Virus record (IMG/VR): IMGVR_UViG_3300047462_000782
Coordinates: 1 to 22,530 of that record
Direction: 5' to 3' (one strand)
Length of the DNA: 22,530 nt
DNA from: a virus
The notes under the pieces are model-generated. The model saw only the letters and a program-made list of their open reading frames with translations, had not been told where the DNA came from and searched no databases. How positions within the stretch are numbered: the stretch's first letter is position 1; the number at the start of each line of letters is the position of its first letter. This document shows, in pieces, positions 2,058 to 22,530 of the stretch. A program made the translations under genes and the position numbers.

Positions 2058-2088
2058 GCGAAGCGAGCGACCGAAGAAGAGGTTCCGC

Positions 2089-5043
2089 ATGTCCGACAAA
2101 CAAGAACCGTCCCTGCAGGAACTCCGCGAACAGGTGGAGCGGCAAGAATTGCTGGTCCGCAAACGCACGTTGGAGACGGCGTACAACTGGTACGACGACT
2201 ACGTCAATCCCGCCGAACCCCTCTTCGACACTCCCGACTTCTTCTTCCCCCTCGCCGGCGAAAATCTGCCGTTTAATTTGGACAACCGCCAAAAAGGCGA
2301 GTTGCTTCCGGTTTACATCACCGAGTACGGACTCAAGATTCTCCGTGACTATTCCCGCTGGCTCGCCGCCTTCAACCCCTTCGCTCTCAACGCCCTCGAC
2401 AACCGCGTCTCCTACACCGTCGGCACCGGCTTCGGCTACCGCGCCGTACCCACTCGCGATGACGATGTGGAAGCGTGGCGCCTCTGCCGGCAGGTTCAGG
2501 GAGTAATCGACGACTTCCTGGAACGCACCGACTGGGGGGAGCTGGAGCAAGAAGTCCTCCGCCGCGCCGACCGCGACGGCGAGGCCTTCCTCCGCTTCTT
2601 CCCCACCGGCAACGGCCATTGCACGGTGCGGACGGTGGAACCCGAGCACGTCAAGAGTCCCGGCGACCAGTCGGCCCACTTCTCCTTCGGCGTCGAGACC
2701 CCCGAGCACGACGTCCAGGACGTCCTCGCCTTCTGGATCGTCGAAGAACCTTCTGTCGGCTGGTCGCCCAGCCGCGTGCCCGCCGACGAAGTGGTGCACA
2801 TCCGCCTCAACGTCGACCGTTCCGCCAAACGCGGCTACCCCACACTGATACCGGTGCGGCGCAACCTCCTCCGCGCCGACAAGCTGCTCCAGAACATGTC
2901 CACCCTGGCCCAGGTCCAGGCCACCTTCGCCCTTATCCGCAAACACAAACAGTACCCCGCCAGCGCTGTGCAGAGCTGGCAGCAAAGCCAGGCCGACCTC
3001 GCCGTCGGCGACCCCGTCAGCGGCAATAGTCGTTACCTGCAGCGCTACCTGCCCGGCACCATCCTCGACGTCCCCGACCAGACCGACTACGAGTTCCCCG
3101 CCGCCAAGGTCCCCGCCGATTCCCTCGTCGCCGTCTTGCAGGCCGAACTCCGCGCCGTGGCGGCGCGCCTCGTCTTGCCCGAGTACATGCTCACCAGCAA
3201 TGCCGAGAATGCCAACTACGCCAGCACCCTGGTGGCCGAGGCGCCGGCCGTCAAGCACTTCCAGCGCCTGCAGCGGCAACTGGCCCGCGCCTTCGGCGAC
3301 GGTCGCTACGGCGGACCACGCCGCTGCGGCGCGCTGTGGCGCGTCCTTGAGTGCGCCGTCCGCTGGGGCAAAATTCCCAAGGACGTCTTCCGCCGGGTGG
3401 CGCTGCACGTCGAGCCGCCCTCACCGGTCGCCCGCGACCGGGACAAGGAGACCGCTCGCGCGGCGTCGTTGAACAAGGCCGGCGTGCTGTCCAAGGCCAC
3501 CTGGTCGAAGTGGGAGGGGCTCGACCCGGCCCGCGAGCGGCGACAGATCGAACGCGAGAAGCAACTCGAACAACCACCGGCGGCCGGCCGCGATCCACTG
3601 ACCGAGACTGTGCAGCGTCTGCTGGAACAGTGTCAGCCGCACAAGAGCGGCCGCTTCCAGGGCACGAACATCGGCTACGACCCGGAGCGGCATAACGCCA
3701 ATTGCCGACTCGCACCGGCCGGCAGCGGTCAACTCGCCCGACAAGCCGGCCAGCAAGTGCCGGCCGAGAAACCACGGCCGGATGGGGATGCCAACCCAGC
3801 CGCAGGCGACCGCCCGGCGGCCCAGCCCGCGGCCGACCAAACGGTTGTCGAACACCCGTCCAAGGACGACTCCAATCTCCAATGGATCACCCGCCAGAAG
3901 ATGCAGGACTTGGCGGACCATCACCTCGTCCACACTTTCGGAGAAGTCAACGACTACCAGCCCTACCGCGTCCTCATCGCCCCCTACGGCACCGGCGTCC
4001 GCGCCTTTGTCTACACCCTCGACGTCAACCCCGCAGCCCTGGGCGACCGGCAGTGGCGCCTGGCCGCCATGTACTCCTTCGGGTTGCCGCCCGGCGCCAC
4101 GCCACAACAACTCCAGACCGCGCTGGCCGGCATCGACACCGCGGACGTGGCCCGGCGGCTCGTCAAGGCGACTCAAGACACCGGCCTGGCCGCGGCCAAC
4201 GTCGCCGCGATGAACTCGGCCATTCTCATAATCAACATGCTCCCGGGAGGGGCCACGGCCGACGCCCTCGACCGCAAGGACTACGTCGATGCCACGATCT
4301 CCTTCGTCGGTGATGTCGCCACGCTCGGCAGCATCTGGGCCGCCTGGAAGGCGGGGCGAGCGCTAAAGGCCGGCCAGGCTGCCCTACGGGCCAATCAGGC
4401 ACTGGTCCGTTTCCAAGCCATCGACGGCGCGATTGCCGTGGCCCGCACGGGCCAGGCGGGCTATGCTGTCATCCAGGGAGAGGATGGCAAGGCCGCCGGC
4501 TATATGGGCGAGGCACTCCTCCGCCTCTTCGGCATCGCCTACACTCGGGCGAAAGCGCCGGCCGTCACCAAGGTGCCCAAGGGCCGTGTCGTTCTCGCCA
4601 TGGGGCCGCGAACGACCACCTTCCACACATGGGAGGTGCACCTCGAAGGGCCATTACAAAAACAGGCGCAAAGCGTGGTCGAAAAGGCCGCGAACATTGC
4701 CGGGATCGACACGCGCAGAGTCCGAGTTGGTTATTCCCCCAACGCGGCGACCCCAGTCTATGAAAAAATGAGTGACGGAAAGCTCGCCCTCGTCCTGAAC
4801 AAGGGCTCGCTGACCCACAAGGAACAGGCGACCAAGCTACTAGTCGCACTCCACGAGTTGATGCACCACCAAGATATCGAGAAACACGGCCTGGAGGCCA
4901 TGAGGAAGCTGGCCGGAAAGGCCCCTTACGAGATGGACGTTGAAAAGCGGGCGTTTGACCTTCTTAAGGAGTCCTACGGCAAGCCCTTGCCCGAGGAAAC
5001 CGTACGATTCCATTCAGAGCTGGTCAAACACCTGAGCAAATAG
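2089..5043 (+). CDS. Portal protein 1 fused to polymorphic-toxin-like C-terminus
   Basis: This 984-aa protein starts at the ATG at 2089, behind GAAGAAGAGG; the frame is open further upstream but through the GC-rich repeat. Residues 1 to about 541 are a phage portal: a conserved N-terminus, HIRLNVDR-AKRGYPTLIPV in the middle, and LPEYMLTSNAENANYAS, typical of lambda-type portals. They match portals 2 and 3 in this window almost residue for residue. After NANCRL (about 541) homology to portal 2 stops. Next come a Pro/Ala-rich linker, an unknown region (~600-700), a hydrophobic Gly/Ala-rich pre-toxin-like stretch (~705-800), and a tip (875-984) with H922-E-L-M-H926 and E948/E952 in EMDVEKRAF, the layout of an IrrE-type zinc peptidase. 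Ordinary portals are far shorter. The portal call is firm; the toxin role is inferred from architecture. Confidence 0.9.
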   Translation: MSDKQEPSLQELREQVERQELLVRKRTLETAYNWYDDYVNPAEPLFDTPDFFFPLAGENLPFNLDNRQKGELLPVYITEYGLKILRDYSRWLAAFNPFALNALDNRVSYTVGTGFGYRAVPTRDDDVEAWRLCRQVQGVIDDFLERTDWGELEQEVLRRADRDGEAFLRFFPTGNGHCTVRTVEPEHVKSPGDQSAHFSFGVETPEHDVQDVLAFWIVEEPSVGWSPSRVPADEVVHIRLNVDRSAKRGYPTLIPVRRNLLRADKLLQNMSTLAQVQATFALIRKHKQYPASAVQSWQQSQADLAVGDPVSGNSRYLQRYLPGTILDVPDQTDYEFPAAKVPADSLVAVLQAELRAVAARLVLPEYMLTSNAENANYASTLVAEAPAVKHFQRLQRQLARAFGDGRYGGPRRCGALWRVLECAVRWGKIPKDVFRRVALHVEPPSPVARDRDKETARAASLNKAGVLSKATWSKWEGLDPARERRQIEREKQLEQPPAAGRDPLTETVQRLLEQCQPHKSGRFQGTNIGYDPERHNANCRLAPAGSGQLARQAGQQVPAEKPRPDGDANPAAGDRPAAQPAADQTVVEHPSKDDSNLQWITRQKMQDLADHHLVHTFGEVNDYQPYRVLIAPYGTGVRAFVYTLDVNPAALGDRQWRLAAMYSFGLPPGATPQQLQTALAGIDTADVARRLVKATQDTGLAAANVAAMNSAILIINMLPGGATADALDRKDYVDATISFVGDVATLGSIWAAWKAGRALKAGQAALRANQALVRFQAIDGAIAVARTGQAGYAVIQGEDGKAAGYMGEALLRLFGIAYTRAKAPAVTKVPKGRVVLAMGPRTTTFHTWEVHLEGPLQKQAQSVVEKAANIAGIDTRRVRVGYSPNAATPVYEKMSDGKLALVLNKGSLTHKEQATKLLVALHELMHHQDIEKHGLEAMRKLAGKAPYEMDVEKRAFDLLKESYGKPLPEETVRFHSELVKHLSK
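4318..4710 (+). repeat. Pre-tip cassette, parental copy of a long direct repeat
   Basis: This 393-nt block encodes portal-1 residues 744-874, just before the metallopeptidase-like tip. It is repeated at 8553-8944 with about seven substitutions and one 1-nt deletion by my count. Its right edge coincides with the start of the tip. Confidence 0.9.
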
Positions 5044-5098
5044 GCGTCGCGCGCCTTCCAATGCCTTTGCTGTTTATCGTCCGAAGAGGAGACTTCTC

Positions 5099-5314
5099 GT
5101 GCTAGCGTCACCATTTCACTGGTTCCTGCTAAACCTCCGGCAAGAGTTGCCACCAACGTCCTTGTACTACCTGCCCAAAGAAGAGGCACACCAGAGACTG
5201 GTGGAGCGCACCGGGCAGGACTTCGGGTACGACGACAAGCGCTGGGAACGGTGGGGAGTAGATAATCATCAATTCCTGCCAGGGTATGAACCCAAACTCG
5301 ACCCTGACATCTGA
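5099..5314 (+). CDS. Small protein next to portal-1 tip, candidate immunity protein
   Basis: This 71-aa protein starts at GTG 5099, about 8 nt behind a strong AGAGGAG site and 55 nt after the portal-1 stop, the position of an immunity gene in polymorphic-toxin loci. It has no signal peptide, so it would act in the cytoplasm. Residues about 38-54 read TGQDFGYDDKRWERWG, a Gly-Asp-Phe-Gly / Trp-x-x-Trp pattern that I associate with small C-terminal modules in planctomycete proteins. No catalytic motif is visible. The immunity assignment rests only on position and size. It could also be an unrelated small module. Confidence 0.6.
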   Translation: MLASPFHWFLLNLRQELPPTSLYYLPKEEAHQRLVERTGQDFGYDDKRWERWGVDNHQFLPGYEPKLDPDI

Positions 5315-5388
5315 TACAACTCGTGTCCATCCCGGGCCTGTTTGTATGGCTGTCCCGGACTTTGACCTTGAACGGCTCAATCGCCATT

Positions 5389-5880
5389 ATGATTCTTCAC
5401 CGATTTACAATCTCTGACCAAATGGCGGAATACGACCCGGTAACCGGGGACATGACGACGTTCTCACTCAAGGCCGAGCCGGGCCGTGCATCCGGTACGT
5501 TTTGCGGGCACTTTGACTACCCGGGGGGACAAACTTCTCCTTCTTTTTCGCCTTACGGGCGTTCTGCACTTGCAGGCCCAAAGTCAACGCCTGGCCATGT
5601 CCGATCACACCGTCAAGCTTCTAAGCCCGGGCGACCGCCGCATTCTCCGCGTGCGCTCGGCGACGAAGACCGTCCTTGAAATAACCTACGATGCCCCCGT
5701 CATTGATCCGCCGCTCAGCGAAGACATGACCCCCATGGTCGAGGAAGAAGACTTCGATTTTGGCCTCTTCCTTGCCAATGTGTCCCGAGACCGAGGCCGA
5801 CAAGACCGACTTTACCCTGGCTGCTGATCGAGGGGCTGGCGCCAACAGCGTTTGCCGAATCCGGAGGCCATGTGAAGTAG
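5389..5880 (+). pseudogene. Frame-broken gene in the accessory array
   Basis: A coherent protein can be read only by changing frame. It starts MILHRFTISDQ at 5389 and runs to FDYPGG. At the run of six G (5523-5528) it continues one frame over as GDKLLLLFRLTGVL and on to EEEDFDFGLFLANVS. A further break around 5780-5820 leads to PWLLIEGLAPTAFAESGG and a stop at 5878-5880. An extra G in the run explains the first break. It lies among candidate immunity genes, but no family is recognised and the start has no good ribosome binding site. It is either a decayed gene or affected by homopolymer sequencing errors. Confidence 0.5.
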
Positions 5881-6923
5881 CTCATCTGTGTGCCCCGGGC
5901 TCTAACGTTACCCGATGGTTCGCCGAGGATCCGATACGGCACCTGAAGCACAGGTGCGACACCGAACATTCCGTGTGGTCACCCTCGGACGTACTGGCAT
6001 TTATGCATGAAGCCGCCGATCTAATGTCGTACAAGTGGCTCGACTTCAGCGCGCCTTCCGCGCCCCGGGGTAGCGACCAAGTACCGAAGGGAAGCAACAC
6101 AGTCGTAGTCGGCGATCTCGCCATGGCGAAGAAACAGCTCGGGAACATCGCGTTTATGTTCGTGCCCACCATCGACCGGCCCAACGGTCCGACCCTTTCA
6201 ATCGGCGCAGAGGCCAAAGGATTCGCAGACTGGTGGAAGGGCGACAACCACAAGGAACCCGTCCTAGGTGTCAAAACTGCACCCAAGGTCAAGGACGCTC
6301 TTGAGGAAATCGCCCGCATCGGCTACTCTGTCGAGCCGTACTACAAAGCGCCGGCATTCGGTAACTTTGAGGATCCGCCTGTCTATCGCGCGGATAATCT
6401 CGCCGCCTTTGCTGTCGGCCGCGATCTTGGCTGGACGTTCCTCGACGAATTGGCCCGGGATGGTCAGGAAGAACCGCGGAAAAAGATTAAAAGCATGCTT
6501 TGCAAGAAGAACAACGCCAAGAACGACGCGACGGTCGAAAAAAACGTGCAGATACTGACTGACCGCTTGGAAAAACTGCTGAACCGAAAGGTCGGCAATG
6601 GTGGCAAGGATTTGGCGAACGTCGTCGATTCTTTTCGCAAGTTCCAGCCGATTTCGAACGCGCCGCCCATTACCCTTGACGCCCTGACCACTACGCCTGA
6701 CTACGGCGGCTTCAATTTCCGCAGTCTGGCAGGCAGCGACAAAGCGCCCGCCTTTAGTTCAATGGACAACAGCATTGCCGCCGCCGATCGGATGTTCAAG
6801 GAATTCAAGCGAGAGACAGGCCACGACAAGAACGACGACCGATTCAAGCGATGGCGGGCCGAAAAATACCAGCAATGGACTGTACCTGGTAATGGGTTTC
6901 CTCTCATTCCTCACGACAAATGA
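5760..6923 (+). CDS. Unrecognised ORF, possibly a displaced toxin tip
   Basis: The open frame spans 387 codons. TTG 5760 is the most upstream start, but it overlaps the broken gene before it, and an internal start such as ATG 6003 is plausible; no start has a convincing ribosome binding site. From about residue 50 the composition is protein-like, with VPKGSNTVVVGDLAM, FMFVPTIDRPNGP and a Lys-rich helical part at about 240-290. I recognise no domain. The last ~30 residues (RFKRWRAEKYQQWTVPGNG...) are closely matched by the fragment at 8988-9089, which sits directly behind an orphan portal pre-tip block. This suggests the ORF is a toxin tip detached from a portal stem. There is no signal peptide or catalytic motif that I can name. 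Confidence 0.55.
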   Translation: MASSLPMCPETEADKTDFTLAADRGAGANSVCRIRRPCEVAHLCAPGSNVTRWFAEDPIRHLKHRCDTEHSVWSPSDVLAFMHEAADLMSYKWLDFSAPSAPRGSDQVPKGSNTVVVGDLAMAKKQLGNIAFMFVPTIDRPNGPTLSIGAEAKGFADWWKGDNHKEPVLGVKTAPKVKDALEEIARIGYSVEPYYKAPAFGNFEDPPVYRADNLAAFAVGRDLGWTFLDELARDGQEEPRKKIKSMLCKKNNAKNDATVEKNVQILTDRLEKLLNRKVGNGGKDLANVVDSFRKFQPISNAPPITLDALTTTPDYGGFNFRSLAGSDKAPAFSSMDNSIAAADRMFKEFKRETGHDKNDDRFKRWRAEKYQQWTVPGNGFPLIPHDK

Positions 6924-6977
6924 AACCCAGCCCACTATTCTCGCTAGCCGCAGGAACGCCTCGCCACGGAGTTCGAC

Positions 6978-7769
6978 ATGCGCACGTTGGCATGGGTCGC
7001 CGCCTCGGCAGTTCTCTTGACATCAATGGCTTTTTCAGCGGCGAGAGGCTTGGGCGCCACCGACGAGGAAAGCGCCGTCGCGTCCCTGCGATCTCTCGGC
7101 GTGCAGATCACCGCCGACAAGAAGTGCCCCGAGAAGTTATCGCTTAACGCCTCGCTGGCATTCAAGAATACTGACGAGGGCAAGGTCAAAGCCTTTGCAC
7201 CCCTTCGGCGGCTAAGGTCGCTGAAAGCGGTTTACATCGGCGGATGGGGCGTCAACGATGCGCTTCTCGGGTATCTGACAGACTTGCCCCAATTAGAGTG
7301 TGTGGACTTGGGTTACACGTTTGTAGGAGACGAAGGCCTGCGATGCCTTTCAAAGATTACGAGTCTTAGGAATCTCAGCCTAACCTTAAATACAAAGATT
7401 ACCGACCGCGGCATCCGGCATTTGGGAAAGCTCGTGAATCTGGAGGAATTGGTGATTTCCGACTGTCCCAAGATAAGCGGTGCCGGCTTGATAGCTGTTC
7501 GGCGCATGACAAAGCTTCGGCATCTCGACTTGAGTCGGACTTCCGTCACGGATGACGGCGTGCCGGCGCTCGGACCGCACCCCGCCTTGGAGAGCGTGAT
7601 ACTTCGCTGTACCATGTTCAGCGATAAGGCAATGGATGGCTTGGCGACGATGGTCAATCTTCGGGATTTGGACGTTGAGGAGACCGTTGTCACGACAGCC
7701 TGTGCAAACGCCTTCCGAAAGGCACATCCGAACGTCAAGGTTGATCACAGGAGAGGACTTTTTGAGTAG
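6978..7769 (+). CDS. Exported leucine-rich-repeat protein 1
   Basis: This 263-aa protein starts at ATG 6978 behind CACGGAG. Residues 1 to about 25 form a Sec signal (MRTLAW, a hydrophobic core, then SAARGLGA). The rest is a run of about seven LRRs of the bacterial planctomycete type, with units such as LRSLKAVYIGGWGVNDALLG, LRNLSLTLNTKITDRGI and LRHLDLSRTSVTDDGVPALG, ending in AFRKAHPNVKVD. It overlaps the next LRR gene by 8 nt and belongs to a three-member paralogous set in a toxin-like array. A periplasmic immunity or binding role is inferred from context only; LRR proteins of this type also occur widely in planctomycetes with no known function. Confidence 0.85.
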   Translation: MRTLAWVAASAVLLTSMAFSAARGLGATDEESAVASLRSLGVQITADKKCPEKLSLNASLAFKNTDEGKVKAFAPLRRLRSLKAVYIGGWGVNDALLGYLTDLPQLECVDLGYTFVGDEGLRCLSKITSLRNLSLTLNTKITDRGIRHLGKLVNLEELVISDCPKISGAGLIAVRRMTKLRHLDLSRTSVTDDGVPALGPHPALESVILRCTMFSDKAMDGLATMVNLRDLDVEETVVTTACANAFRKAHPNVKVDHRRGLFE

Positions 7770-8535
7770 GAGCGTATGGTTGCCCGTCGTGGCGCTCTGT
7801 CTTGCACCGCTCCACGGACATGCCGCGCGTTTCGACGGCGTGACACCACAGCGGCGTACGATTTATGCCTTGGAGAGACGAGGTGTCAAAGTTTGGTGCG
7901 GAGACTATGAATGGGTCAAGCCGGCAATTGCCATAGAATCATTCATCAGTCCGTTTGATGAGGTATCAGTAGATGACTTCGCTCTGATTCGTCAGCTGCC
8001 ATCAGTGCGCGAGGCGATGCTGACGGGTGCTCGCATTGACGACACGTATCTGCAGCACCTGTCCAGTCTGCCAAATTTGGAAACCATCGAACTAGTGGAC
8101 ACCAGGATCACAGACCGTAGCCTCGAACGATTGAGTCATCTGAAGAAGCTCCGGCGGCTCACCATAGCATTTTGTCCGAAGGTCTCCGATCGTGGCGTGG
8201 AATACCTGAAAACGCTGACGAACCTGGAAGAGCTTACCCTTACCGACGTGCCGGGCCTCACGGGGCCGGGACTTATCTCGGTGCAAGGAATGCCTAAGCT
8301 GCGCGCGCTGGACATTTCTTGGTCCTCCGTCACGGACGAGGGTATCACGGCCATCGGAGGCCACCCCGCGCTACAGAAGCTGACGCTGGAAGAGTGCAAG
8401 GTCACCGATTCGGCCCTGCAGACTATCGGTGCGCTGCCGAAGCTGCGCGAATTGACGATCGATGAAAGGCGGATTACGAAAACCCGTCTCGACGCCTTTC
8501 GCAAGGTTCGCCCGAGCGTGCAAATCAACCATTAG
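7762..8535 (+). CDS. Exported leucine-rich-repeat protein 2
   Basis: I place the start at TTG 7762, which overlaps the previous stop (7767-7769) and has AGGAGAGG just upstream. This start gives a clear Sec signal (LSRSVWLPVVALCLAPLHGHAA), whereas an upstream start at 7636 would bury that segment. The mature part contains LRRs (LETIELVDTRITDRSLERL, LRRLTIAFCPKVSDRGVEYL, LRALDISWSSVTDEGITAIG, LRELTIDERRITKTRLDAF) and ends like its two paralogues (AFRKVRPSVQINH). It is translationally coupled to LRR protein 1. Its role is unknown; immunity to a portal tip acting in the envelope is the contextual guess. Confidence 0.82.
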   Translation: MSRSVWLPVVALCLAPLHGHAARFDGVTPQRRTIYALERRGVKVWCGDYEWVKPAIAIESFISPFDEVSVDDFALIRQLPSVREAMLTGARIDDTYLQHLSSLPNLETIELVDTRITDRSLERLSHLKKLRRLTIAFCPKVSDRGVEYLKTLTNLEELTLTDVPGLTGPGLISVQGMPKLRALDISWSSVTDEGITAIGGHPALQKLTLEECKVTDSALQTIGALPKLRELTIDERRITKTRLDAFRKVRPSVQINH

Positions 8536-8552
8536 GATTTCGCGCGGTCGAC

Positions 8553-8944
8553 GCCACGCTCGGCGGTATCTGGGCCGCCTGGAAGGCGGGGCGAGCGCTA
8601 AAGGCCGGCCAGGCTGCCCTACGGGCCAATCAGGCACTGGTCCGTTTCCAAGCCATCGACGGCGCGATTGCCGTGGCCCGCACGGGCCAGGCGGGCTATG
8701 CTGTCATCCAGGGAGAGAATGGCAAGGCCGCCGGCTATATGGGCGAGGCACTCCTCCGCCTCTTCGGCATCGCCTACACTCGGGCGAAAGCGCCGCCGTC
8801 ACCAAGTTGCCCAAGGGCCGCGTCGTTCTCGCCATGGGGCCGCGAACGACCACCTTCCACACATGGGAGGTGCATCTCGAAGGGCCATTAAAAAAACAGG
8901 CGCAAAGCGTGGTCGAAAAGGCCGCGAACATTGCCGGGATCGAC
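8553..8944 (+). repeat. Pre-tip cassette, second copy of the long direct repeat
   Basis: This block of about 392 nt is nearly identical to 4318-4710. The near identity, including at third codon positions, points to a recent duplication or gene conversion, since the rest of the surrounding array is not repeated. Confidence 0.9.
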
Positions 8945-9089
8945 ATGCGCCGCGAGCCGAATGTGGGAATTATTCCAAAAGGAAACCAATAGCAAGGACC
9001 AGGGCATGTTCGCAAAGTGGCGCGAACGTAAGTATCAGTCCTGGACTCAGCCCGGCAACGGACTGCCGCTCAGCCGGTCAGACGAGTAG
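8553..9089 (+). pseudogene. Orphan portal-tip cassette (broken, no stem)
   Basis: Positions 8553-8944 repeat portal-1 nucleotides 4318-4710 almost exactly. One G is missing near 8795 (GCGCCGCCG for GCGCCGGCCG), which breaks the frame. After GIDMRREPN the sequence is unlike tip 1 and reaches a stop at 8990-8992. In another frame, 8988-9089 encodes FAKWRERKYQSWTQPGNGLP, matching the C-terminal end of the 5760-6923 ORF. There is no portal stem, start codon or ribosome binding site. This is the pattern of an orphan tip in polymorphic-toxin loci: pre-tip homology plus a different end. It looks decayed here. Confidence 0.8.
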
Positions 9090-9142
9090 TCAGTGCGTTT
9101 CTCGACTCTGGCCATGCCGGTGCATCGCGAAAGGAATGGTCA

Positions 9143-9661
9143 ATGTTTCGGCTCGTCCGCGCTTACACGGTACTCGCTGTGCTTCCGTCATTGGCCCTCT
9201 CGATCACGGCGCCGAAGGTGCGGGCCGGTGAAGCAGAGACGATCTCCGCGCTCCGATCAATCGGCGTCCACATCACGACAGACGACGCACTCCCTGGCAG
9301 ACCTCCGGTGAGCGCCCGCATTATCGACGACGGTGCGGGTGGGGATCGGACCAGCCGGTATGCGCCGATTCAAACCCTTCGATCCCTCCGCGAGCTCGAC
9401 CTCACGGGTTTCGGTGTCGATGATCGGTACATCGAATACCTCTCTGGCCTGCCCGAATTGGAGTCGGTTAGTCTGGTCCACACGGCTGTTACCGACCGTG
9501 GGATCGAAAGACTCGGCACGCACACAAAACTAAAGCACCTCCGTCTTAGCTTCAACTATCAGGTTACCGATCGCGGTATGGTCCTCTACGAAACACAGAT
9601 TACCAAAACGAAGCTCGAGGCCTTTCGCGAAGCCCGTCCAGAGATCAATGTCCGCTATTAG
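9143..9661 (+). CDS. Exported LRR protein 3, internally shortened
   Basis: This 172-aa protein starts at ATG 9143 behind AAAGGAA. A signal peptide covers residues 1 to about 29 (LVRAYTVLAVLPSLALS, then KVRAGEAE). The LRRs LRSLRELDLTGFGVDDRYIE and LESVSLVHTAVTDRGIERL are followed by NYQVTDRGM, and then the sequence jumps directly to VLYETQITKTKLEAFREARP, the closing motif of its paralogues. About 90-100 residues of central repeats are missing compared with LRR protein 2, without a frame break, as expected from recombination between repeats. It follows the orphan tip fragment, so it may be the leftover partner of that tip. Function is unknown. Confidence 0.78.
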   Translation: MFRLVRAYTVLAVLPSLALSITAPKVRAGEAETISALRSIGVHITTDDALPGRPPVSARIIDDGAGGDRTSRYAPIQTLRSLRELDLTGFGVDDRYIEYLSGLPELESVSLVHTAVTDRGIERLGTHTKLKHLRLSFNYQVTDRGMVLYETQITKTKLEAFREARPEINVRY

Positions 9662-9728: not shown

Positions 9729-9893
9729 ATGCACCTGCCAGGAGGCACCCGTAAGGAGGGTGAAACTTGGACGGACGACAACGGGGGCATCGTTGTCGCC
9801 TTTGACAAGGCCGGCCGGGTGACCGAGCGGGGATGGCCCGGCGACGGCAGCAAGTGGTCCCCGAAGCGCATCATCACGCGGCTGCGCAACTGA
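9729..9893 (+). pseudogene. Remnant of a small BamE/SmpA-like protein
   Basis: A 54-codon frame encodes WTDDNGGIVVAFDKAGRVTE and then WSPKRIITRLRN. The W-x-D-D-x-G-x-I-x-V-x-F-D-x-x-G-x-V pattern resembles the C-terminal half of small SmpA/BamE-fold proteins frequent in planctomycetes. The expected N-terminal half is absent and the upstream 60 nt contain stops, so I read it as a truncated remnant. The ATG at 9729 has no good ribosome binding site. The rest of 9662-10152 shows no gene that I can support. Confidence 0.4.
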
Positions 9894-10152
9894 TGGGAGG
9901 ATATTCGCGAAGGGCCACCGCCGCCGTTTAAACCTCAGTAATCGCACAGCAAATCACGGGTAAGTAGCGACTCCGGCCTAGACGTGAGCTGCACATCAAG
10001 CTCGTCACGACCGTCACCGCCACAGGCTTCACTGTCCGCGACCTACGGAATTATCTGGCGCGCGTTGGGCCGGCCGGGCCCGGGCTGTTCTAGCCTGGTC
10101 GCGCCACATCCCTCACCGACCGGCACCGACTGCCAAGTACGAGGCAACAACC

Positions 10153-11016
10153 ATGTACGATTTCGACGAACAGCTCCTACAGCGGATCGACTCCGACTCG
10201 GGACGGAATTCGGCGGCGGACGCCGCCTCTCCGGCCCCGCAGGCAGGGCAACGCCAGTCCCCGTGGACCGCGGCCACGCCAGCGACGCCACAAATCGCTC
10301 GCTACGACACGGGTCGTCACCAACGGCTGCATCGAGAGGGCTTGCCCGTAGCCGCGTTGTTCCACCGGGGCACCGTGTTCCGCGAACGCCTGGCCGCGGC
10401 CACGGGCGGGCAGCCCGCCAGCGGTTCACGCGGAGGCACTCCGCGCCATCACGGGGTCGAACGTCACGCCGCCGGCTCGAAACCGCTGGTCCACCGGACG
10501 GCGCGGCCGTTCGCCGCGCCTCCCATCGGGCCGAGCTCGGGCACCGGCGGCGGTCAACCGGCCACGGCCGGCCCGGCCAACCCGACGCGACCGGCAATCG
10601 ACACACCCGCGCCGCCGCGACCCGGGAACTCCTCCGGTCAGCCGTCCGTGCCCTCCGGCGTCGACTTCGCCTCCGTCGCCGCCGGCGCCTGGGGCTCGGT
10701 CCTCCGCGATTTCCGCGCCCGCGCGGAGGCTGCCGGCCAGTGGCTCCGCGGTTTCTTTACCCCCCAAGCCGGCGCGGGCGGCGCCGGGCCCAATACGGTA
10801 TACCCGCTCGACCCGCACCTTCGGACGCCGCCGCAGGCCGTGTTTTCACCGGCCGACGAGGCCCGAAGGGTCCTCGGCGCCCACACGCCCGAGGCCGACT
10901 CTTCCGACCTGCGGCTGCGGCAAAAGGCCCTTGAGTTCTTCGAACGCTTCGAACAGGAGTGGGGCCGGGCCATTCTGGACACCGCCCGCGCCGCCCGAAG
11001 CTCGGGCCTGTCGTGA
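10153..11016 (+). CDS. Ala/Pro/Gly-rich hypothetical protein
   Basis: This 287-aa protein starts at ATG 10153 behind ACGAGGC and lies 140 nt before portal 2. The N-terminus (MYDFDEQLLQRIDSD) and the C-terminal ~50 residues, a charged helix around LRLRQKALEFFERFEQEWG, look like real protein. The middle, about 20-175, is low-complexity and rich in Ala, Pro, Gly and Arg, as in a disordered linker. No family is recognised, and there is no signal or membrane segment. The position before a portal suggests a particle-associated or adaptor role, but this is weak. High-GC low-complexity frames can be spurious, so confidence is moderate. Confidence 0.55.
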   Translation: MYDFDEQLLQRIDSDSGRNSAADAASPAPQAGQRQSPWTAATPATPQIARYDTGRHQRLHREGLPVAALFHRGTVFRERLAAATGGQPASGSRGGTPRHHGVERHAAGSKPLVHRTARPFAAPPIGPSSGTGGGQPATAGPANPTRPAIDTPAPPRPGNSSGQPSVPSGVDFASVAAGAWGSVLRDFRARAEAAGQWLRGFFTPQAGAGGAGPNTVYPLDPHLRTPPQAVFSPADEARRVLGAHTPEADSSDLRLRQKALEFFERFEQEWGRAILDTARAARSSGLS

Positions 11017-11156: not shown

Positions 11157-14100
11157 ATGCAAGCCAACGGCCACGTCCCGTCCCTGCAGGAACTCCGTGA
11201 ACAGGTGGAGCGGCAAGAATTGCTGGTCCGCCAACGCACGCTGGAGACGACGTACAACTGGTACGACGACTTCGTTAACCCCGCCGAACCTCTCTTCGAC
11301 ACTCCCGACTTCTTCTTCCCCCTCGCCGGCGAAAACCTGCCCTTCAACCTCGACAACCGCCAGAAGGGCGAACTGCTCCCCGTCTACATCACCGAGTACG
11401 GACTCAAGATCCTCCGCGACTATTCCCGCTGGCTCGCCACCTTCAACCCCTTCGCCCTCAACGCCCTCGACAACCGTGTCTCCTACACCGTCGGCACCGG
11501 CTTCGGCTACCGCGCCCTGCCCGCGCAGGATGACGACCCCGGGGCCTGGCGCCTTTGCCGTCAGGCGCAGGCGATCCTCGACGACTTCCTGGAACGCACC
11601 GACTGGGGCGAGTTGGAACAGGAAATCCTCCGCCGCGCCGACCGCGACGGCGAGGCCTTCCTCCGCTTCTTCCCCACTCGCGATGGCCAGTGCACCGTCC
11701 GCACCGTCGAACCCGAGCACGTCAAGAGTCCCGGCGACCAGTCCGCCCACCTCTCCTTCGGCATCGAGACCCCCGAACACGACGTCCAGGACGTCCTCGC
11801 CTTCTGGATCGTCGAAGAACCTTCTGTCGGCTGGTCGCCCAGCCGCGTGCCCGCCGACGAAGTGGTGCACATCCGCCTCAACGTCGACCGCTGTGCCAAA
11901 CGCGGCTACCCCACACTGATACCGGTGCGCCGCAATCTCCTTCGCGCCGACAAGCTGCTGCAGAACATGTCCACCCTGGCGCAGGTCCAGGCCACCTTCT
12001 CCCTCATCCGCAAGCACAAGCAGTACCCGGCCAGCGCTGTCCAGAGCTGGCAGCAAAGCCAGGCCGATATCGCCGTCGGCGACCCCGTCAGCGGCAACAC
12101 CCGTTACCTGCAGCGCTACCTGCCCGGCACCATCCTCGACGTCCCCGAGCAGACCGACTACGAGTTCCCCGCCGCCAAGGTCCCCGCCGACTCCCTCGTC
12201 GCCGTCTTGCAGGCCGAACTCCGCGCCGTGGCCGCACGGCTCGTCTTGCCCGAATACATGCTCACCAGCAACGCCGAGAATGCCAACTATGCCAGCACCC
12301 TGGTGGCGGAGGCGCCAGCCGTCAAGCACTTCCAGCGCCTGCAGCGCCAGCTCGCCCGCGCCTTCGGCGACGGTCGCTACGGCGGACCACGCCGCTGTGG
12401 CGCGCTCTGGCGCGTGCTCGAATGTGCCGTCCGCTGGGGAAAGCTGCCACGCGACGTGTTTCGGCGCGTGGCGCTGCACGTCGAGCCGCCCTCGCCCGTG
12501 GCCCGCGACCGGGACAAGGAGACCGCGCGAGCCGCGGCACTGCACAAGGCCGGCGTGCTGTCCAAGGCGACTTGGTCCAAGTGGGAGGGGCTGGACCAAG
12601 CCCGCGAGCGGCGACAGATCGAACGCGAGAAAGAACTCGAACAACCGCCCGCGCCTGGCCGCGACCCGTTCGCCGAACAGGTCCAGCGCCTGCTCGAACA
12701 ATGTGTGCCGCACAAGAGCGGACCGTTTGTTGGCACCGACATCGGCTACGACCCCGACAACCACAACGCCAACTGCCGGCTCAGCGCGCGCGAAAAGGCC
12801 GAGCGGCTCAACCAATTCGTCCGACAATTGGCCGACGATGTCGGCCAGGACGGCGGGGCCGTCGACCCGAAGCTGGTCGGCCTCCTGCTCGACTCTCTGA
12901 CCCCCGAGCAACGCGAGCAACTCTACAAGTACTACCAGGACAACGCCGAACGCTGGCAGGAAGAGGCCGACCGCCAGGCGGCACTTCAGGCCGAACTTCG
13001 CAACGACCCCGAGCTGGCCCGTGAACTGGAAGCGGAGATTGCCCGCCGGCGCGGCGAGTTTGAGAAGACCAGTCCCCAACTCAGTGCCGAGCAGCGTCGC
13101 CAGGCGGCGCCATGGCTCTACAAGAAGGAATACCGCTACTTCGCTCCGATGCTGACGGCTGGGCCCGACGGCAAGCCCCGGGTCGATTTCGCCGCTACTG
13201 CGGCCCTGCGCCGCCTGCAACTCCGCCAGGCGCTACTCCGCGGCATCGGCTGGATCGGCGGCGGACCCGATGCACTGCACGCCGTCCGTCCGGAACGTGC
13301 CTTCCAGCCACCGCACGGCGACGACGAGGCCATGGCCTGGTACCAACTCTACGGTACCACGCCCGCCCAGAAGCTCGGCTCGCTGCCAGGCGAGCGCGGC
13401 GGCGCGCAGGCGGCCAATAGTGACCTGCAGGTGTTGGTGCCGGCCGGCGCACTACTCCGCACCGGCGGCACCTTTGCCGGCTTTGTCGCCCGGTCCGCTT
13501 GGGAGATTTTCACCAGCATTGTCTTCGCCCAAGCGGCCGACGCGGTCGCCGAAAAGCACGGCCCTGCCGCCGGGGCCGTGGTGCCGTTCATCCCCACTCT
13601 CGTCGGCCTACTCCGCGGCCGCGCCGTCGACGCCCCGGCCTTTCGACGATTCTTGCGGCGCAAGCCCGGCCCCAACCCTGTGCCGATGCGCGGCGCCGCG
13701 TCGCCGCGGATACCGCCCACGAGCGCTGGCGTTAACGATTGGGAGCAGCTAGAACGGCAGGTGCAAGGCTTTGCCAACCAGGTCGCGCATGAACTCGGCG
13801 TTTCCACGAGCGACGCGGCAAGGGCTGCCGGCAAGAGCGATGTGGGGACGTGGAGAATTGACTTCCTCGAGCATCAAGTCGATGGTCAAGTGCACTTTGG
13901 CACGGTCCATGAAAGTCACTCTGGCGGTGGCCGAATACTACTCGATAAGGGTATCCTGTTTCCGGCAGAATCGGGAAGTCCCGAGCTTGCAAAACTTCCT
14001 CTTAAGTCGCGCGTACAGGCCATCCTGATTCACGAGGTCACGGAGGGGGACGTGGCACGAACTCTGAAGCTTGGACCGAACCAGATGGTAGACAAGACAC

Positions 14101-14210
14101 ATGGCCTTTCCCTACTGACCTCACCGTTCTCCGACCTCGCGCGGAAGGCCGACCCCGAAGTCCGCTCGTACCTCCTCAAGTGGAAGCAAAAGGGTGGCGA
14201 CCCGCCCTAA
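11157..14210 (+). CDS. Portal protein 2 with a different C-terminal extension
   Basis: This 1017-aa protein starts at ATG 11157. Residues 1 to about 542 match portal 1 nearly throughout, including the central HIRLNVDR and LPEYMLTSNAENANYAS segments and the closing NANCRL; many third positions differ. Beyond that it is unrelated to portal 1: a charged helical region (~545-640), an unknown region with WLYKKEYRYFAPML, hydrophobic pre-toxin-like stretches (~755-825, e.g. AAGAVVPFIPTLVGLL), and a tip from about 860. The tip has IHEVTEGD with H959, E960 and E963, and H982 in DKTHGLS, which could be a variant metal site but lacks HExxH. The portal call is firm; tip function is unknown. It is followed 58 nt later by a candidate immunity gene. 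Confidence 0.88.
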   Translation: MQANGHVPSLQELREQVERQELLVRQRTLETTYNWYDDFVNPAEPLFDTPDFFFPLAGENLPFNLDNRQKGELLPVYITEYGLKILRDYSRWLATFNPFALNALDNRVSYTVGTGFGYRALPAQDDDPGAWRLCRQAQAILDDFLERTDWGELEQEILRRADRDGEAFLRFFPTRDGQCTVRTVEPEHVKSPGDQSAHLSFGIETPEHDVQDVLAFWIVEEPSVGWSPSRVPADEVVHIRLNVDRCAKRGYPTLIPVRRNLLRADKLLQNMSTLAQVQATFSLIRKHKQYPASAVQSWQQSQADIAVGDPVSGNTRYLQRYLPGTILDVPEQTDYEFPAAKVPADSLVAVLQAELRAVAARLVLPEYMLTSNAENANYASTLVAEAPAVKHFQRLQRQLARAFGDGRYGGPRRCGALWRVLECAVRWGKLPRDVFRRVALHVEPPSPVARDRDKETARAAALHKAGVLSKATWSKWEGLDQARERRQIEREKELEQPPAPGRDPFAEQVQRLLEQCVPHKSGPFVGTDIGYDPDNHNANCRLSAREKAERLNQFVRQLADDVGQDGGAVDPKLVGLLLDSLTPEQREQLYKYYQDNAERWQEEADRQAALQAELRNDPELARELEAEIARRRGEFEKTSPQLSAEQRRQAAPWLYKKEYRYFAPMLTAGPDGKPRVDFAATAALRRLQLRQALLRGIGWIGGGPDALHAVRPERAFQPPHGDDEAMAWYQLYGTTPAQKLGSLPGERGGAQAANSDLQVLVPAGALLRTGGTFAGFVARSAWEIFTSIVFAQAADAVAEKHGPAAGAVVPFIPTLVGLLRGRAVDAPAFRRFLRRKPGPNPVPMRGAASPRIPPTSAGVNDWEQLERQVQGFANQVAHELGVSTSDAARAAGKSDVGTWRIDFLEHQVDGQVHFGTVHESHSGGGRILLDKGILFPAESGSPELAKLPLKSRVQAILIHEVTEGDVARTLKLGPNQMVDKTHGLSLLTSPFSDLARKADPEVRSYLLKWKQKGGDPP

Positions 14211-14268
14211 TCGATAAATGACATCCCTCATCCCTCTTGCGATTGCCTCTTGCACAGGGAGATTATTA

Positions 14269-14733
14269 ATGGACGGACTGGAAATGAGGCTCTATCCCGG
14301 GCCCACTCAGACTTCTGTATCGGTGCGGATGAAGAATTCGTCGTCCGGCCCTCTGACCGTTGCCGCTCCGAATCCGTTTCAATCGGTCTGGATTGGTGAC
14401 CCTAACGGCATTCCACATACTCGTGTTCGGTCCGTCAGGTACAATCATACTGTCAAATCGGCGCGGCTCGAACCAAAAGAGGCGCTGGACATAATAATTG
14501 ATCTCTTCAATTACTGCCACGATGTTCAGGGCAGTTGCCTGGTGCGTATCCGATTTGAGGTGACCGACGACCACGGGGTGCGCCATGAGCAATTTGTGGA
14601 AGGAGAGGCGTTCCTCAAGGTTCCCTCTTATGAGGAGCGTCTTGAGGAAACGAAGCGAAATCCAAGACCCCGGGGCGGGCCGATAAAGGTCTTCGACGTT
14701 AGCGATAGCACTCGATTTGAGAGAGTGTACTAA
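14269..14733 (+). CDS. Candidate immunity protein for portal-2 tip
   Basis: This 154-aa protein starts at ATG 14269, supported by AGGGAG upstream and by a paralogue at 14844 that starts at the same residue (MDxLEMxL). The sequence is beta-rich: TSVSVRMKNSSSGPLTVAAP, then LEPKEALDIIIDLFNYCHD and VRIRFEVTDDHG. The order 'N-S-S-G-x-L-x-V ... L-x-P-x-E' suggests an Ig-like sandwich, loosely like small proteinase-inhibitor folds. It has no signal peptide. Its place directly behind the tip and its duplication together with a tip fragment support an immunity role. The fold and inhibitor idea are inference. Confidence 0.72.
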   Translation: MDGLEMRLYPGPTQTSVSVRMKNSSSGPLTVAAPNPFQSVWIGDPNGIPHTRVRSVRYNHTVKSARLEPKEALDIIIDLFNYCHDVQGSCLVRIRFEVTDDHGVRHEQFVEGEAFLKVPSYEERLEETKRNPRPRGGPIKVFDVSDSTRFERVY

Positions 14734-14764: not shown

Positions 14765-14820
14765 GTCCGCTCCTACTGCCTCAAATGGAAAGAGAAAGGC
14801 GGCAAACCCACTCTGCCTGA
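14765..14820 (+). pseudogene. Remnant of the C-terminal end of tip 2
   Basis: Read from 14765 the sequence encodes VRSYCLKWKEKGGKP, against VRSYLLKWKQKGGDP at the very end of portal 2 (14160-14207). Twelve of 15 residues agree. It sits just before a paralogue of the gene that follows portal 2, so a tip-immunity pair was duplicated and most of the tip lost. Confidence 0.7.
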
Positions 14821-14843
14821 AGCGAAACACAAGGAGACTGCCG

Positions 14844-15240
14844 ATGGACGAATTGGAAATGACGCTCCACAGCGGCCCTACCCCGACGTCCGTATCTGTG
14901 CGCATTAAGAATTCATCACCGGGCACATTAAGTATCGCGGCCCCGAATCTCTATTACTCCCTCTGGGTAACCGATGGTTCCGGCGAGCTCTTCCCCCGTA
15001 TCCGGGTTTTCAAGTGTGCCCATTCGCCGAAGTCCGCGCTGCTCCAACCCCGACGAAGAGACCCTCGCCACGATCGACCTCCTTCACTACTGCCATAGCG
15101 TCGACGGCCCGGCCAACGGCTCGGATGGAAATGGCGTGTTCAACTCATACCGCGTCCCAAGAGCACGACTTGGGACGTCCAGGCAACACGTCTTGGAGAT
15201 TAGTTGTGAACGAATCCGAAAACCATTACTGGCCCTATGA
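14844..15240 (+). pseudogene. Frameshifted paralogue of the tip-2 immunity candidate
   Basis: ATG 14844 follows AAGGAG. The protein MDELEMTLHSGPTPTSVSVR and onward parallels the gene at 14269 through KSALLQP, then breaks at a run of four C (15048-15051). In the next frame it resumes as DEETLATIDLLHYCHSVDG, which matches KEALDIIIDLFNYCHDVQG. An extra C accounts for the shift. After VDG similarity fades. It is either decaying or carries a homopolymer sequencing error. The end is taken at the stop of the second frame. Confidence 0.7.
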
Positions 15241-17310: not shown

Positions 17311-18513
17311 ATGCTCGGGCAAAACCTTCGCCAACTCTACGAATCGCTCGGCCCGGCCGAGTGTGTTCACCTGCTTTCCGAAGGGATCAAGACCGGGGAG
17401 TTCAAGCCAACCGACTTCAGCCTTCGGGAACTCGCCGAAGCTTTCTGCGGCGAAAACTGGGTACGGCGGCTGAACCCCGCCAGCACCGCCCGCTACGGCA
17501 CGGTCGACCTGCTCGAGGCCGGCGAGGGCGTGGACGTCACCGCCTTCTCGAACATCACCGGCCAGATCTTCTACAACCGCATCCTGGAGGGATGGAAGAA
17601 CGCCACCCTCGTCAGCGAACAAGTCACCGAACGCATACCGACCACGCTCGACGGGGAAAAGATGCCCTGGCTGTCCCACGTGCTCAGTGAGGGCCAGGCG
17701 ATCCATCCCGGCATGCCTTACCCGGAGGCGAACTTCGGCGAACGCTACGTCACCACGCCATCGACCACGAAATACGGCCTGATCGTGTCGGTCACCAAGG
17801 AGATGATCTTTTTCGACCGCACCGGCCAGGCACTGCGGGCGGCCGGCGAGACCGGATTCAAGCTCGGTTACAACAAGGAAAAGCGCGTCCTCAACGTCGT
17901 GCTCGGCCTGGTTAACAGTTACTCGCTGAACGGCACGACTTACAACACCTACCTGGCCGCCCCGCAAACGCCGCCGGCTTATGCCAACACCCAGGCGTCG
18001 ACGCCGCTGGTGGATTACACCTCCATCCAGTCGGCCATCACTCTCGCCAGCCAGATTCTCGACCCGGACACGGGCAACCCGCTCGACAATATCGAGATGA
18101 AACAATTGCTCGTGATGCCGGCGCGACTATTCCACGCCAAGCGCCTGGCTGCCGCGACCGAATACCGGTCGACCTACCCCGGCTTCGCGGCGACAGCGTC
18201 CGAGCCGGACGGCAACGTGCAGATGATCGCGCCGAATCCCGTCGGGCCGCTGCAGGTCCTCACTTCCCCGATCGCCTACCAACTTTTGGTCAACAGCGGC
18301 CTGAGCGCGACGCAGTCCAACGAGTACTGGTACATCGGCGACTTCAAGCGCGCCTTCGCGTACATGGAGAACTGGCCCATCACCGTCGTCCAGGAGCCGG
18401 CGAATTCCATCAAGGAATTCGAACAGGACCTGGTCGTGCGCTACAAGGCGAGCGAGCGGGGCACACCGGCCGTTCTGGACCCGCGCTACGTCTTCAAACT
18501 CACGAACACCTAA
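17311..18513 (+). CDS. Major capsid protein (HK97 fold)
   Basis: This 400-aa protein starts at ATG 17311; the ribosome binding site is weak. It forms the icosahedral shell. The N-terminal helix-rich part (MLGQNLRQLYESLGP, then FSLRELAEAFCGENWV) precedes a core with SNITGQIFYNRILEGW, SVTKEMIFFDRTGQ, YNKEKRVLNVVLG and a C-terminal FEQDLVVRYKASERGTPAV / DPRYVFKL, the ordering of HK97-type shells. Length is typical. It sits between the decoration-like and head-completion genes. No long N-terminal delta domain precedes it, consistent with a separate scaffold gene upstream. Confidence 0.88.
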   Translation: MLGQNLRQLYESLGPAECVHLLSEGIKTGEFKPTDFSLRELAEAFCGENWVRRLNPASTARYGTVDLLEAGEGVDVTAFSNITGQIFYNRILEGWKNATLVSEQVTERIPTTLDGEKMPWLSHVLSEGQAIHPGMPYPEANFGERYVTTPSTTKYGLIVSVTKEMIFFDRTGQALRAAGETGFKLGYNKEKRVLNVVLGLVNSYSLNGTTYNTYLAAPQTPPAYANTQASTPLVDYTSIQSAITLASQILDPDTGNPLDNIEMKQLLVMPARLFHAKRLAAATEYRSTYPGFAATASEPDGNVQMIAPNPVGPLQVLTSPIAYQLLVNSGLSATQSNEYWYIGDFKRAFAYMENWPITVVQEPANSIKEFEQDLVVRYKASERGTPAVLDPRYVFKLTNT

Positions 18514-21264: not shown

Positions 21265-22530
21265 ATGCAATCGAACGGCCATGTTCCGTCCCTGTCCGAG
21301 CTGCGCGAGCAAGTCGAACGTCAGGAACTCCTCCTCCGCCAACGCACGCTGGAGACGGCGTACAACTGGTACGACGACTTCGTCAACCCCGCCGAACCTC
21401 TCTTCGACACACCCGACTTCTTCTTCCCCCTCGCCGGCGAAAACCTGCCCTTCAACCTCGACAACCGCCAGAAGGGCGAACTGCTCCCCGTCTACATCAC
21501 CGAGTACGGACTCAAGATCCTCCGCGACTATTCCCGCTGGCTCGCCGCCTTCAACCCCTTCGCCCTCAACGCCCTGGAAAACCGCGTCTCCTACACGGTC
21601 GGCACTGGCTTCGGTTACCGTGCTGTACCTGCTAACGACGACGATCCCCAGGCGTGGCGCCTTTGCCGCCAGGCGCAGGCGGTAATCGACGACTTCCTGG
21701 AACGCACCGACTGGGGCGAGCTGGAACAGGAAATCCTCCGCCGCGCCGACCGCGACGGCGAAGCCTTCCTCCGCTTCTTCCCCACCGGCAACGGCAATTG
21801 CACGGTGCGGACGGTGGAACCCGAGCACGTCAAGAGTCCCGGCGACCAGTCGGCCCACCTCTCCTTCGGCGTCGAGACCCCCGAGCACGACGTCCAGGAC
21901 GTCCAGGCCTTCTGGATCGTCGAAGACCCGTCCCTCGGCTGGTCGCCCAGCCGCGTGCCCGCCGACGAGGTGGTGCACATCCGCCTCAACGTCGACCGCT
22001 CCGCCAAACGTGGCTACCCCACTCTCATCCCCGTCCGCCGCAACCTCCTCCGCGCCGACAAGCTGCTGCAGAACATGTCCACCCTGGCGCAGGTCCAGGC
22101 CACCTTCGCGCTGATCCGCAAGCACAAACAGTACCCGGCCAGCGCCGTGCAGTCCTGGCAACAGAGCCAGGCCGATCTCGCCGTCGGCGACCCCGTCAGC
22201 GGCAATACCCGTTATCTGCAGCGCTACTTGCCCGGCACCATCCTCGACGTCCCCGACCAGACCGACTACGAGTTCCCCGCCGCCAAGGTCCCCGCCGACT
22301 CCCTGGTCGCCGTCTTGCAGGCCGAGCTGCGCGCCGTCGCCGCACGCCTCGTCTTGCCCGAGTACATGCTCACCAGCAACGCCGAGAATGCCAACTACGC
22401 CAGCACGCTGGTGGCGGAAGCGCCGGCCGTCAAGCACTTCCAGCGCCTGCAGCGGCAACTGGCCCGTACCTTCGGCGACGGTCGCTACGGCGGGCCACGC
22501 CGCTGCGGCGCGCTCTGGCGCGTCCTTGAG
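21265..22530 (+). CDS. Portal protein 3, cut by the window end
   Basis: The frame opens at ATG 21265 and stays open to the last base (422 codons visible). Its start context (CGCGGAATCCCGCC-ATGCAA) matches portal 2. The N-terminus MQSNGHVPSLSELREQ and all visible segments, including HIRLNVDR and LPEYMLTSNAENANYAS, match portals 1 and 2 closely, so a normal portal stem is present. The switch point (about residue 541) and the variable tip lie outside the window. A third portal after the tail tube gene is out of the usual phage order. By analogy I expect a third, different tip with its own immunity gene, but this cannot be seen here. Confidence 0.87.
   Translation, partial: MQSNGHVPSLSELREQVERQELLLRQRTLETAYNWYDDFVNPAEPLFDTPDFFFPLAGENLPFNLDNRQKGELLPVYITEYGLKILRDYSRWLAAFNPFALNALENRVSYTVGTGFGYRAVPANDDDPQAWRLCRQAQAVIDDFLERTDWGELEQEILRRADRDGEAFLRFFPTGNGNCTVRTVEPEHVKSPGDQSAHLSFGVETPEHDVQDVQAFWIVEDPSLGWSPSRVPADEVVHIRLNVDRSAKRGYPTLIPVRRNLLRADKLLQNMSTLAQVQATFALIRKHKQYPASAVQSWQQSQADLAVGDPVSGNTRYLQRYLPGTILDVPDQTDYEFPAAKVPADSLVAVLQAELRAVAARLVLPEYMLTSNAENANYASTLVAEAPAVKHFQRLQRQLARTFGDGRYGGPRRCGALWRVLE

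What the first reader, a model, noticed from the sequence alone, without database searches (positions are those of the whole stretch)
8553..9089. Orphan tip cassette with near-perfect homology to the portal-1 pre-tip region
8553-8944 repeats 4318-4710 with about seven substitutions and one deletion. The homology ends where the tip begins, and a different end follows. Orphan tips with homology arms let polymorphic toxins swap tips by recombination. Here the homology arm lies about 4 kb downstream of the expressed gene.
Basis: partly seen in the sequence, partly recalled or inferred. Interest (0 to 1): 0.85.

Follow-up and report, generated by a model that had tools for sequence, protein, structure and literature searches.

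The report
Decayed relic of a swapped phage toxin tip
In a bacterial virus whose DNA-gate (portal) protein carries swappable, toxin-like ends, the flagged segment is not a spare working end but a broken leftover: a recent copy of part of the current gene joined to the last 45 codons of an older end, next to what looks like that older end's leftover protection gene.

Summary
The repeat is real: 4318-4716 and 8553-8950 match with 8 substitutions and one 1-nt deletion (98%). The interpretation needs changing. What follows 8950 is not a complete alternative tip. It is the last ~45 codons (8949-9089) of a relative of the nearby ORF 5895-6923 ("T1"), followed by an LRR gene, as T1 itself is. In the related record L003, T1 is fused to the portal as its C-terminal tip and is followed by two LRR genes. 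T1 in the window is therefore a displaced tip, and 8553-9661 is an older, mostly deleted tip-immunity unit with a recent pre-tip copy in front. The orphan cannot donate a tip: it has a frameshift, an out-of-frame junction, and most of its tip is gone. The homology also seems to run 20-35 codons into the tip. Downstream lies a stub of the immunity-like gene that follows the portal tip in relative L004 (9753-9947). The region reads as a push-down stack of replaced tips with partner genes left behind, as described for T6SS loci. New here are the carrier, a phage portal protein, and its three copies. Toxicity and immunity are inferred, not tested.

The parts
2083..3711 (+). portal-1, constant part (lambda-family portal domain)
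   Evidence: Pfam PF05136 E 1.7e-26, phrog_21; 89.5% DNA identity to portal-2 up to 3711/12782
3712..4655 (+). portal-1 variable linker / pre-tip; the right end is approximate
   Evidence: No homology to portal-2, L003 or L004 after HNANCRL; GC change-point 4610-4653
4656..5043 (+). portal-1 current tip, HELMHH motif (zincin-like metallopeptidase by motif only; no database match)
   Evidence: Sequence; low-confidence AF2 topology helix-strands-HExxH helix; Pfam negative
4318..4716 (+). source copy of the repeat (pre-tip plus probable start of the tip)
   Evidence: 98% to 8553-8950
5099..5314 (+). small ORF 55 nt after tip-1, putative cognate immunity gene
   Evidence: Position only; no Pfam match
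5895..6923 (+). T1: displaced tip; its homologue is the C-terminal tip of the L003 portal
   Evidence: 178 identities in 341 columns with the L003 portal C-terminus, starting sharply at GSNVTRWF; tblastn 52%, E about 1e-101 or better
6978..7769 (+). LRR1, putative immunity gene with signal-peptide-like N-terminus
   Evidence: Pfam LRR; 45% to L003 LRRa
7753..8535 (+). LRR2, second LRR gene (start approximate)
   Evidence: Pfam LRR; 59% to L003 LRRb
8553..8950 (+). orphan arm: copy of 4318-4716 with a 1-nt deletion and no start codon for its frame
8949..9089 (+). 3' stub of a T1-family tip (about 45 codons), out of frame with the arm
   Evidence: tblastx 6801-6926 ~ 8967-9092; alignment score 117, shuffle maximum 48
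9143..9661 (+). LRR3, retained putative immunity gene with a shortened LRR
   Evidence: Pfam LRR_6 1.3e-5; 32-37% to LRR1, LRR2, LRRa and LRRb
9753..9947 (+). 3' fragment, with an internal stop, of the immunity-like gene that follows the L004 portal tip
   Evidence: score 134 against shuffle maximum 55; tblastn E 1.3e-8, the only hit among the records besides L004
11157..14210 (+). portal-2 with an unrelated variable end (HEVTE motif)
   Evidence: PF05136 4.4e-26; homology to portal-1 stops at 12782
14765..15053 (+). same kind of relic behind portal-2: last ~15 aa of a tip-2 relative plus a decayed copy of the downstream gene (intact copy 14218-14733)
   Evidence: tblastx 14160-14204 ~ 14765-14809 80%, 14233-14478 ~ 14808-15053 51%
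21265..22530 (+). portal-3, cut by the end of the record
   Evidence: 91% DNA identity to portal-2, 95% aa to portal-1

Best explanation
The segment is a decayed layer in a push-down stack of replaced C-terminal tips behind a phage portal gene. The portal gene keeps a constant N-terminal part (to about 3711) and has carried different tips, each with its own downstream gene that probably confers immunity. When a new tip-partner unit is acquired, the old one is pushed downstream, loses its connection to the portal and decays from its 5' side, while the partner gene or a piece of it stays. In the window the layers are: current HELMHH tip with ORF 5099-5314; displaced T1 with LRR1 and LRR2; the orphan, now only a T1-family 3' stub with LRR3; and a fragment of an L004-type partner gene. 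The 399-bp arm is a recent (about 2% diverged) copy of portal-1's pre-tip and tip start, joined to the old stub by an out-of-frame junction that looks illegitimate. Shown: the homologies, the frames, the order, and the occurrence of T1 and the L004 gene as current tip or tip partner in relatives. Inferred: that tips are toxins delivered with the portal, that LRR and other downstream genes are immunity genes, that LRR3 is kept for protection, and the order of events.
For: T1 is a separate ORF in the window but the C-terminus of the L003 portal, 52-54% identical over ~340 aa, and both are followed by two orthologous LRR genes. The orphan has the same local order (T1-family 3' end, 53-54 nt gap, LRR gene) with only ~45 codons of tip left. 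The L004 downstream gene survives in the window as a 3' fragment with a stop. Portal-2 shows the same scar: tip 3' end plus decayed copy of its downstream gene. L003 and L004 carry their own broken portal pieces (488 nt at 93%; 57 nt at 81%). All portal comparisons lose homology within a few nt of 3711. The arm is 98% identical whereas the adjoining stub and LRR3 are 32-49% identical to their paralogues, so they differ in age. GC drops from 0.66 (arm) to 0.56 (stub) at the junction. The same outcome is described for V. cholerae T6SS loci, where old effectors are displaced, their immunity genes are kept and an effector 3' end can be left behind (PMC5361080).
Against: No toxic or protective activity is demonstrated. 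No tip matches a known toxin family except a GHH-like sequence in L003, below Pfam's cut-off. Only three related records carry this portal type, so the stack is inferred from few samples. The metagenomic contig cannot be checked against reads. Structure models have low confidence (pLDDT 41-42), so the tip boundary is uncertain.
Confidence: 0.7

Rival explanations
1. Functional silent tip cassette: the arm recombines with portal-1 and loads the tip that follows 8944.
For: A 399-bp, 98% identical direct repeat is long enough for homologous recombination; orphan CDI modules can keep such homology (PMC3150448).
Against: Only ~45 codons of a tip follow; the junction is out of frame and the arm has a 1-nt deletion; no relative carries such an exchange and the arm DNA is not found elsewhere.
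Confidence: 0.06
2. Simple tandem duplication of the block 4318-8552 followed by a large internal deletion; no tip displacement needed.
For: Order arm - T1-type end - LRR is the same in both units, with the same 53-54 nt gap.
Against: The arm is 98% identical but stub and LRR3 are only 32-49% identical to T1, LRR1 and LRR2, with no DNA-level match; LRR3 is more distant than the LRR1/LRRa and LRR2/LRRb pairs. It would need gene conversion of the arm alone.
Confidence: 0.12
3. The relic is a displaced tip remnant, but the arm in front of it is an unrelated later accident: a 399-bp segment copied there by illegitimate recombination, with no common history with the stub and no role.
For: Neither junction shows a motif; substitutions in the arm look unconstrained (5 amino-acid changes among 8 substitutions); L003 and L004 have similar random-looking portal pieces.
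Against: The arm lies directly in front of a tip stub, where displacement by an incoming pre-tip-tip unit would put it.
Confidence: 0.3
4. The C-terminal ends are not antibacterial toxins but injected anti-host or particle-assembly domains, and the LRR and lipoprotein-like genes are surface or superinfection-exclusion proteins.
For: Portal and MuF fusions to injected effectors are known (PMC5512222, PMC9503650); LRR1-3 have signal-peptide-like starts and ORF 14218-14733 a lipobox-like start (translations), so they may act outside the cytoplasm.
Against: Different ends travel with different downstream genes, and old downstream genes are kept after the end is lost, as expected of immunity genes.
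Confidence: 0.25

Closest known systems
T6SS effector displacement with retained immunity-gene arrays, V. cholerae (Kirchberger 2017, PMC5361080)
   Same: Old effector end displaced by a new effector-immunity unit; a 3' remnant of an effector and old immunity genes stay in a row downstream
   Different: The constant carrier here is a phage portal protein, not a T6SS VgrG; relics are more decayed; a pre-tip copy sits in front of one relic
Orphan cdiA-CT/cdiI and Rhs modules (Poole 2011, PMC3150448)
   Same: Constant gene followed by detached C-terminal ends with small partner genes; some keep homology upstream of the variable part
   Different: CDI orphans can be complete and functional, with homology ending at the VENN motif; here homology seems to pass the tip boundary and the tip is nearly gone and out of frame
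MuF polymorphic toxins of temperate phages (Jamet 2017, PMC5576092; Bxa, PMC11699363)
   Same: Head-module protein of a phage with a variable C-terminal end and small downstream ORFs
   Different: The carrier is the portal itself; no MuF domain found; three portal copies
Portal and MuF fusions among phage polyvalent proteins (Iyer 2017, PMC5512222)
   Same: Effector-like domains fused to portal domains
   Different: Those are described as injected effectors; the passages read do not describe displaced portal tips with retained partner genes

Membership tests
Polymorphic toxin system | Constant N-terminal carrier with variable C-terminal ends | tested here: met
   Four portals (portal-1, portal-2, L003, L004) are 80-90% identical in DNA to about 3711 and unrelated after it; most relatives have portals of about 460-530 aa with no long end
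Polymorphic toxin system | Partner (immunity) gene directly downstream of each end | tested here: inconclusive
   An ORF lies 7-66 nt downstream of each tip in the window and L004, and LRR genes follow in L003; LRR is a recorded immunity class (PMC3482391), but protection is not shown
Polymorphic toxin system | C-terminal end is toxic | not testable with these tools
   Only motif-level hints (HELMHH, HEVTE) and a sub-threshold Tox-GHH match in L003
CDI/Rhs-type orphan tip cassette | Homology to the main gene up to the start of the variable end | tested here: inconclusive
   Homology ends at 4716; likely tip start 4610-4657, but the boundary is of low confidence
CDI/Rhs-type orphan tip cassette | Followed by a complete alternative end readable in frame with the arm | tested here: not met
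   Only ~45 codons, in another frame; arm itself frameshifted
Displaced-effector / retained-immunity array | 3' remnant of an old effector followed by its partner gene, in a row behind the current pair | tested here: met
   8949-9089 plus LRR3; 9753-9947; 14765-15053
Displaced-effector / retained-immunity array | Displaced units match current units of relatives | tested here: met
   T1 is the current end of the L003 portal; the 9753-9947 fragment matches the gene behind the L004 tip
MuF toxin family | MuF domain (PF04233 or PF06152) | tested here: not met
   Pfam scans of portal-1, portal-2, L003 and L004 portals give only Phage_portal_2 above its cut-off

The most novel reading that the evidence does not exclude
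A family of phages uses the portal protein as the carrier of a polymorphic toxin system: several portal copies in one element bear different exchangeable ends, and replaced ends with their partner genes pile up behind each portal as a readable fossil record of past exchanges.
Probability: 0.45. Interest if true: 0.65.

Novelty: new variant of a known kind. Interest (0 to 1): 0.48.

Why it matters
Polymorphic ends on phage head proteins are known mainly for MuF. A portal that carries exchangeable ends, with the present units of two relatives found as displaced relics in a third, would extend the displacement-and-retained-immunity model from bacterial secretion systems to phage head proteins and make it testable by comparing further records.

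Tried and rejected
Silent-donor reading rejected on frame, truncation and lack of exchange at that junction. Whole-block tandem duplication disfavoured by unequal divergence. Searches that found nothing: pre-tip/tip-1 in viral contigs and genome contigs, portal body in genome contigs, in phages and in plasmids, T1 and tip-1 in phages, LRR1 in plasmids, exact arm DNA in viral contigs, tip-1 in PDB sequences (one weak unrelated hit). AlphaFold models were too poor for a fold search, so none was run. Host genomes could not be searched by kinship because the window is a virus record and no genome handle was available. Tip-1 and tip-2 share no detectable sequence similarity.

Full report
What the window is. 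The 22,530-bp window is a whole IMG/VR virus record, probably a fragment. It holds a terminase large subunit (1-1521; phrog_2), three copies of a lambda-family portal gene (2083-5043, 11157-14210 and one cut by the end from about 21265; PF05136), a capsid gene (17311-18513; PF25209) and small head or tail genes. The three portals are about 90% identical in DNA.

The observation. The direct repeat is real. 4318-4716 and 8553-8950 differ by 8 substitutions and a 1-nt deletion. Five of the eight substitutions change an amino acid in the portal-1 frame, compatible with a copy under no constraint, though the number is small.

What follows the arm. The DNA after 8950 is not a new tip. Its open frame ASRMWELFQKET...GNGLPLSRSDE-stop (ending at 9089) aligns with the last 45 residues of ORF 5895-6923 (T1) at 22 of 45 identities, score 117 against a maximum of 48 in 1000 shuffles. 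After 53 nt it is followed by an LRR gene (LRR3, 9143-9661), just as T1 is followed after 54 nt by LRR1 and then LRR2. The stub is read in frame 0's listing; the arm after its 1-nt deletion is read in frame 2 and stops at 8991-8993. Arm and stub are therefore not one reading frame, and the arm frame has no proper start. GC falls from 0.66 in the arm to 0.56 in the stub.

What T1 is. Two records from one metagenome, L003 and L004, carry the closest portals (85% and 81% aa identity). In L003 the portal ORF (948 aa) ends in a domain homologous to T1 over its full length (178 identities in 341 columns, starting sharply at GSNVTRWF), and two LRR genes orthologous to LRR1 and LRR2 follow. So T1 is the kind of domain that sits on the end of a portal, and in the window it has been displaced by the present HELMHH-bearing end. 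L004's portal has a third, unrelated end followed by a 164-aa ORF.

A fossil of the L004 unit. A targeted six-frame search of the stretches between genes found a fragment of that L004 ORF in the window at 9753-9947, 39% identical over 66 residues, with an internal stop (score 134 against a shuffled maximum of 55; tblastn E 1.3e-8 and no other hit among the records). Going downstream from portal-1 the layers are: current end with ORF 5099-5314; complete T1 with LRR1 and LRR2; T1-family stub with LRR3; fragment of the L004-type gene. Decay grows with distance. Behind portal-2 the same kind of scar is seen: the last ~15 residues of a tip-2 relative (14765-14809) and a decayed copy of the gene after tip-2 (14808-15053).

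Where ends are exchanged. All pairwise portal comparisons lose homology at the same place, directly after IGYDPxxHNANCRL (about 3711, 12782, L003 6044, L004 1697). This, not 4710, is the constant/variable boundary of the family. The arm begins about 600 bp further on, inside the variable part. The composition change-point in portal-1 (4610-4653) and a low-confidence model (first helix of the HExxH domain at residue 145 = 4657, pLDDT about 41) suggest that the arm also includes the first 20-35 codons of the tip. This boundary is the weakest point of the argument.

Other broken portal pieces. L003 has a 488-bp portal fragment (14231-14718, 93% to its own portal) joined out of frame to a sequence with a sub-threshold Tox-GHH match. 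L004 has a 57-nt portal fragment (3282-3338, 81%). Extra portal pieces in these elements thus appear prone to deletion, and the window's orphan fits that pattern. In the wider capsid family (80 loci) most portals are about 460-530 aa without a long end, and second portals were seen only in the window and L003.

Mechanism. The best-supported account is repeated replacement of the portal's end by incoming tip-partner units, with old units pushed downstream and decaying from their 5' side while the partner gene or part of it persists. This is the model put forward for V. cholerae T6SS loci, including a shifted-back effector 3' end (PMC5361080). The 399-bp arm is a later, recent copy whose two junctions look illegitimate. 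That tips are toxins and the LRR or other neighbours immunity genes is inference from arrangement; LRR is a recorded immunity class (PMC3482391). LRR1-3 have signal-peptide-like starts, which leaves room for action outside the cytoplasm or for a superinfection-exclusion role.

Known relatives. Phage-borne polymorphic toxins are known on MuF (PMC5576092; PMC11699363), and effector domains fused to portals are recorded (PMC5512222; PMC9503650). I found no paper on exchangeable portal ends with displaced relics, within an open-access library only. MuF domains were not found here. I file this as a new variant: displacement arrays of polymorphic ends with a portal as carrier.

Limits. The host is unknown: genome searches gave nothing and kin of a virus record could not be drawn. 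An acyl-CoA dehydrogenase next to the L003 module indicates that the element can sit in a bacterial chromosome. No reads, no strain series and no experiments were available.

Noticed in passing
window 2083-5043, 11157-14210, 21265-22530: Three portal copies of about 90% DNA identity in one short record; homology of the first two ends at the same IGYDPxxHNANCRL point, and the third is cut by the record end.
   Followed up: partly
window 14765-15053: Relic behind portal-2: last ~15 aa of a tip-2 relative plus decayed copy of ORF 14218-14733.
   Followed up: yes
window 9753-9947: Fragment of the gene that follows the L004 portal tip, with an internal stop.
   Followed up: yes
L003 14231-15249: Portal fragment (93% to own portal) joined out of frame to a sequence with a sub-threshold Tox-GHH match.
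   Followed up: partly
L009 15317-17107 (minus strand): Acyl-CoA dehydrogenase gene next to the L003 phage module, suggesting that the element is integrated in a bacterial chromosome.
   Followed up: partly
window after about 21143; L003 after about 14225: The module looks head-only: no long tape-measure-like gene seen, whereas relatives L015 and L020 have a ~920-aa candidate one.
   Followed up: no
window 5391-5827: Two overlapping frames look like one small gene broken by a frameshift, between tip-1's neighbour and T1.
   Followed up: no
window 6978, 7753, 9143, 14218: LRR genes have signal-peptide-like starts and ORF 14218 a lipobox-like start, suggesting export.
   Followed up: no
window 10153-11016: ORF in a stretch of 73-76% GC in front of portal-2, no family match.
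   Followed up: no
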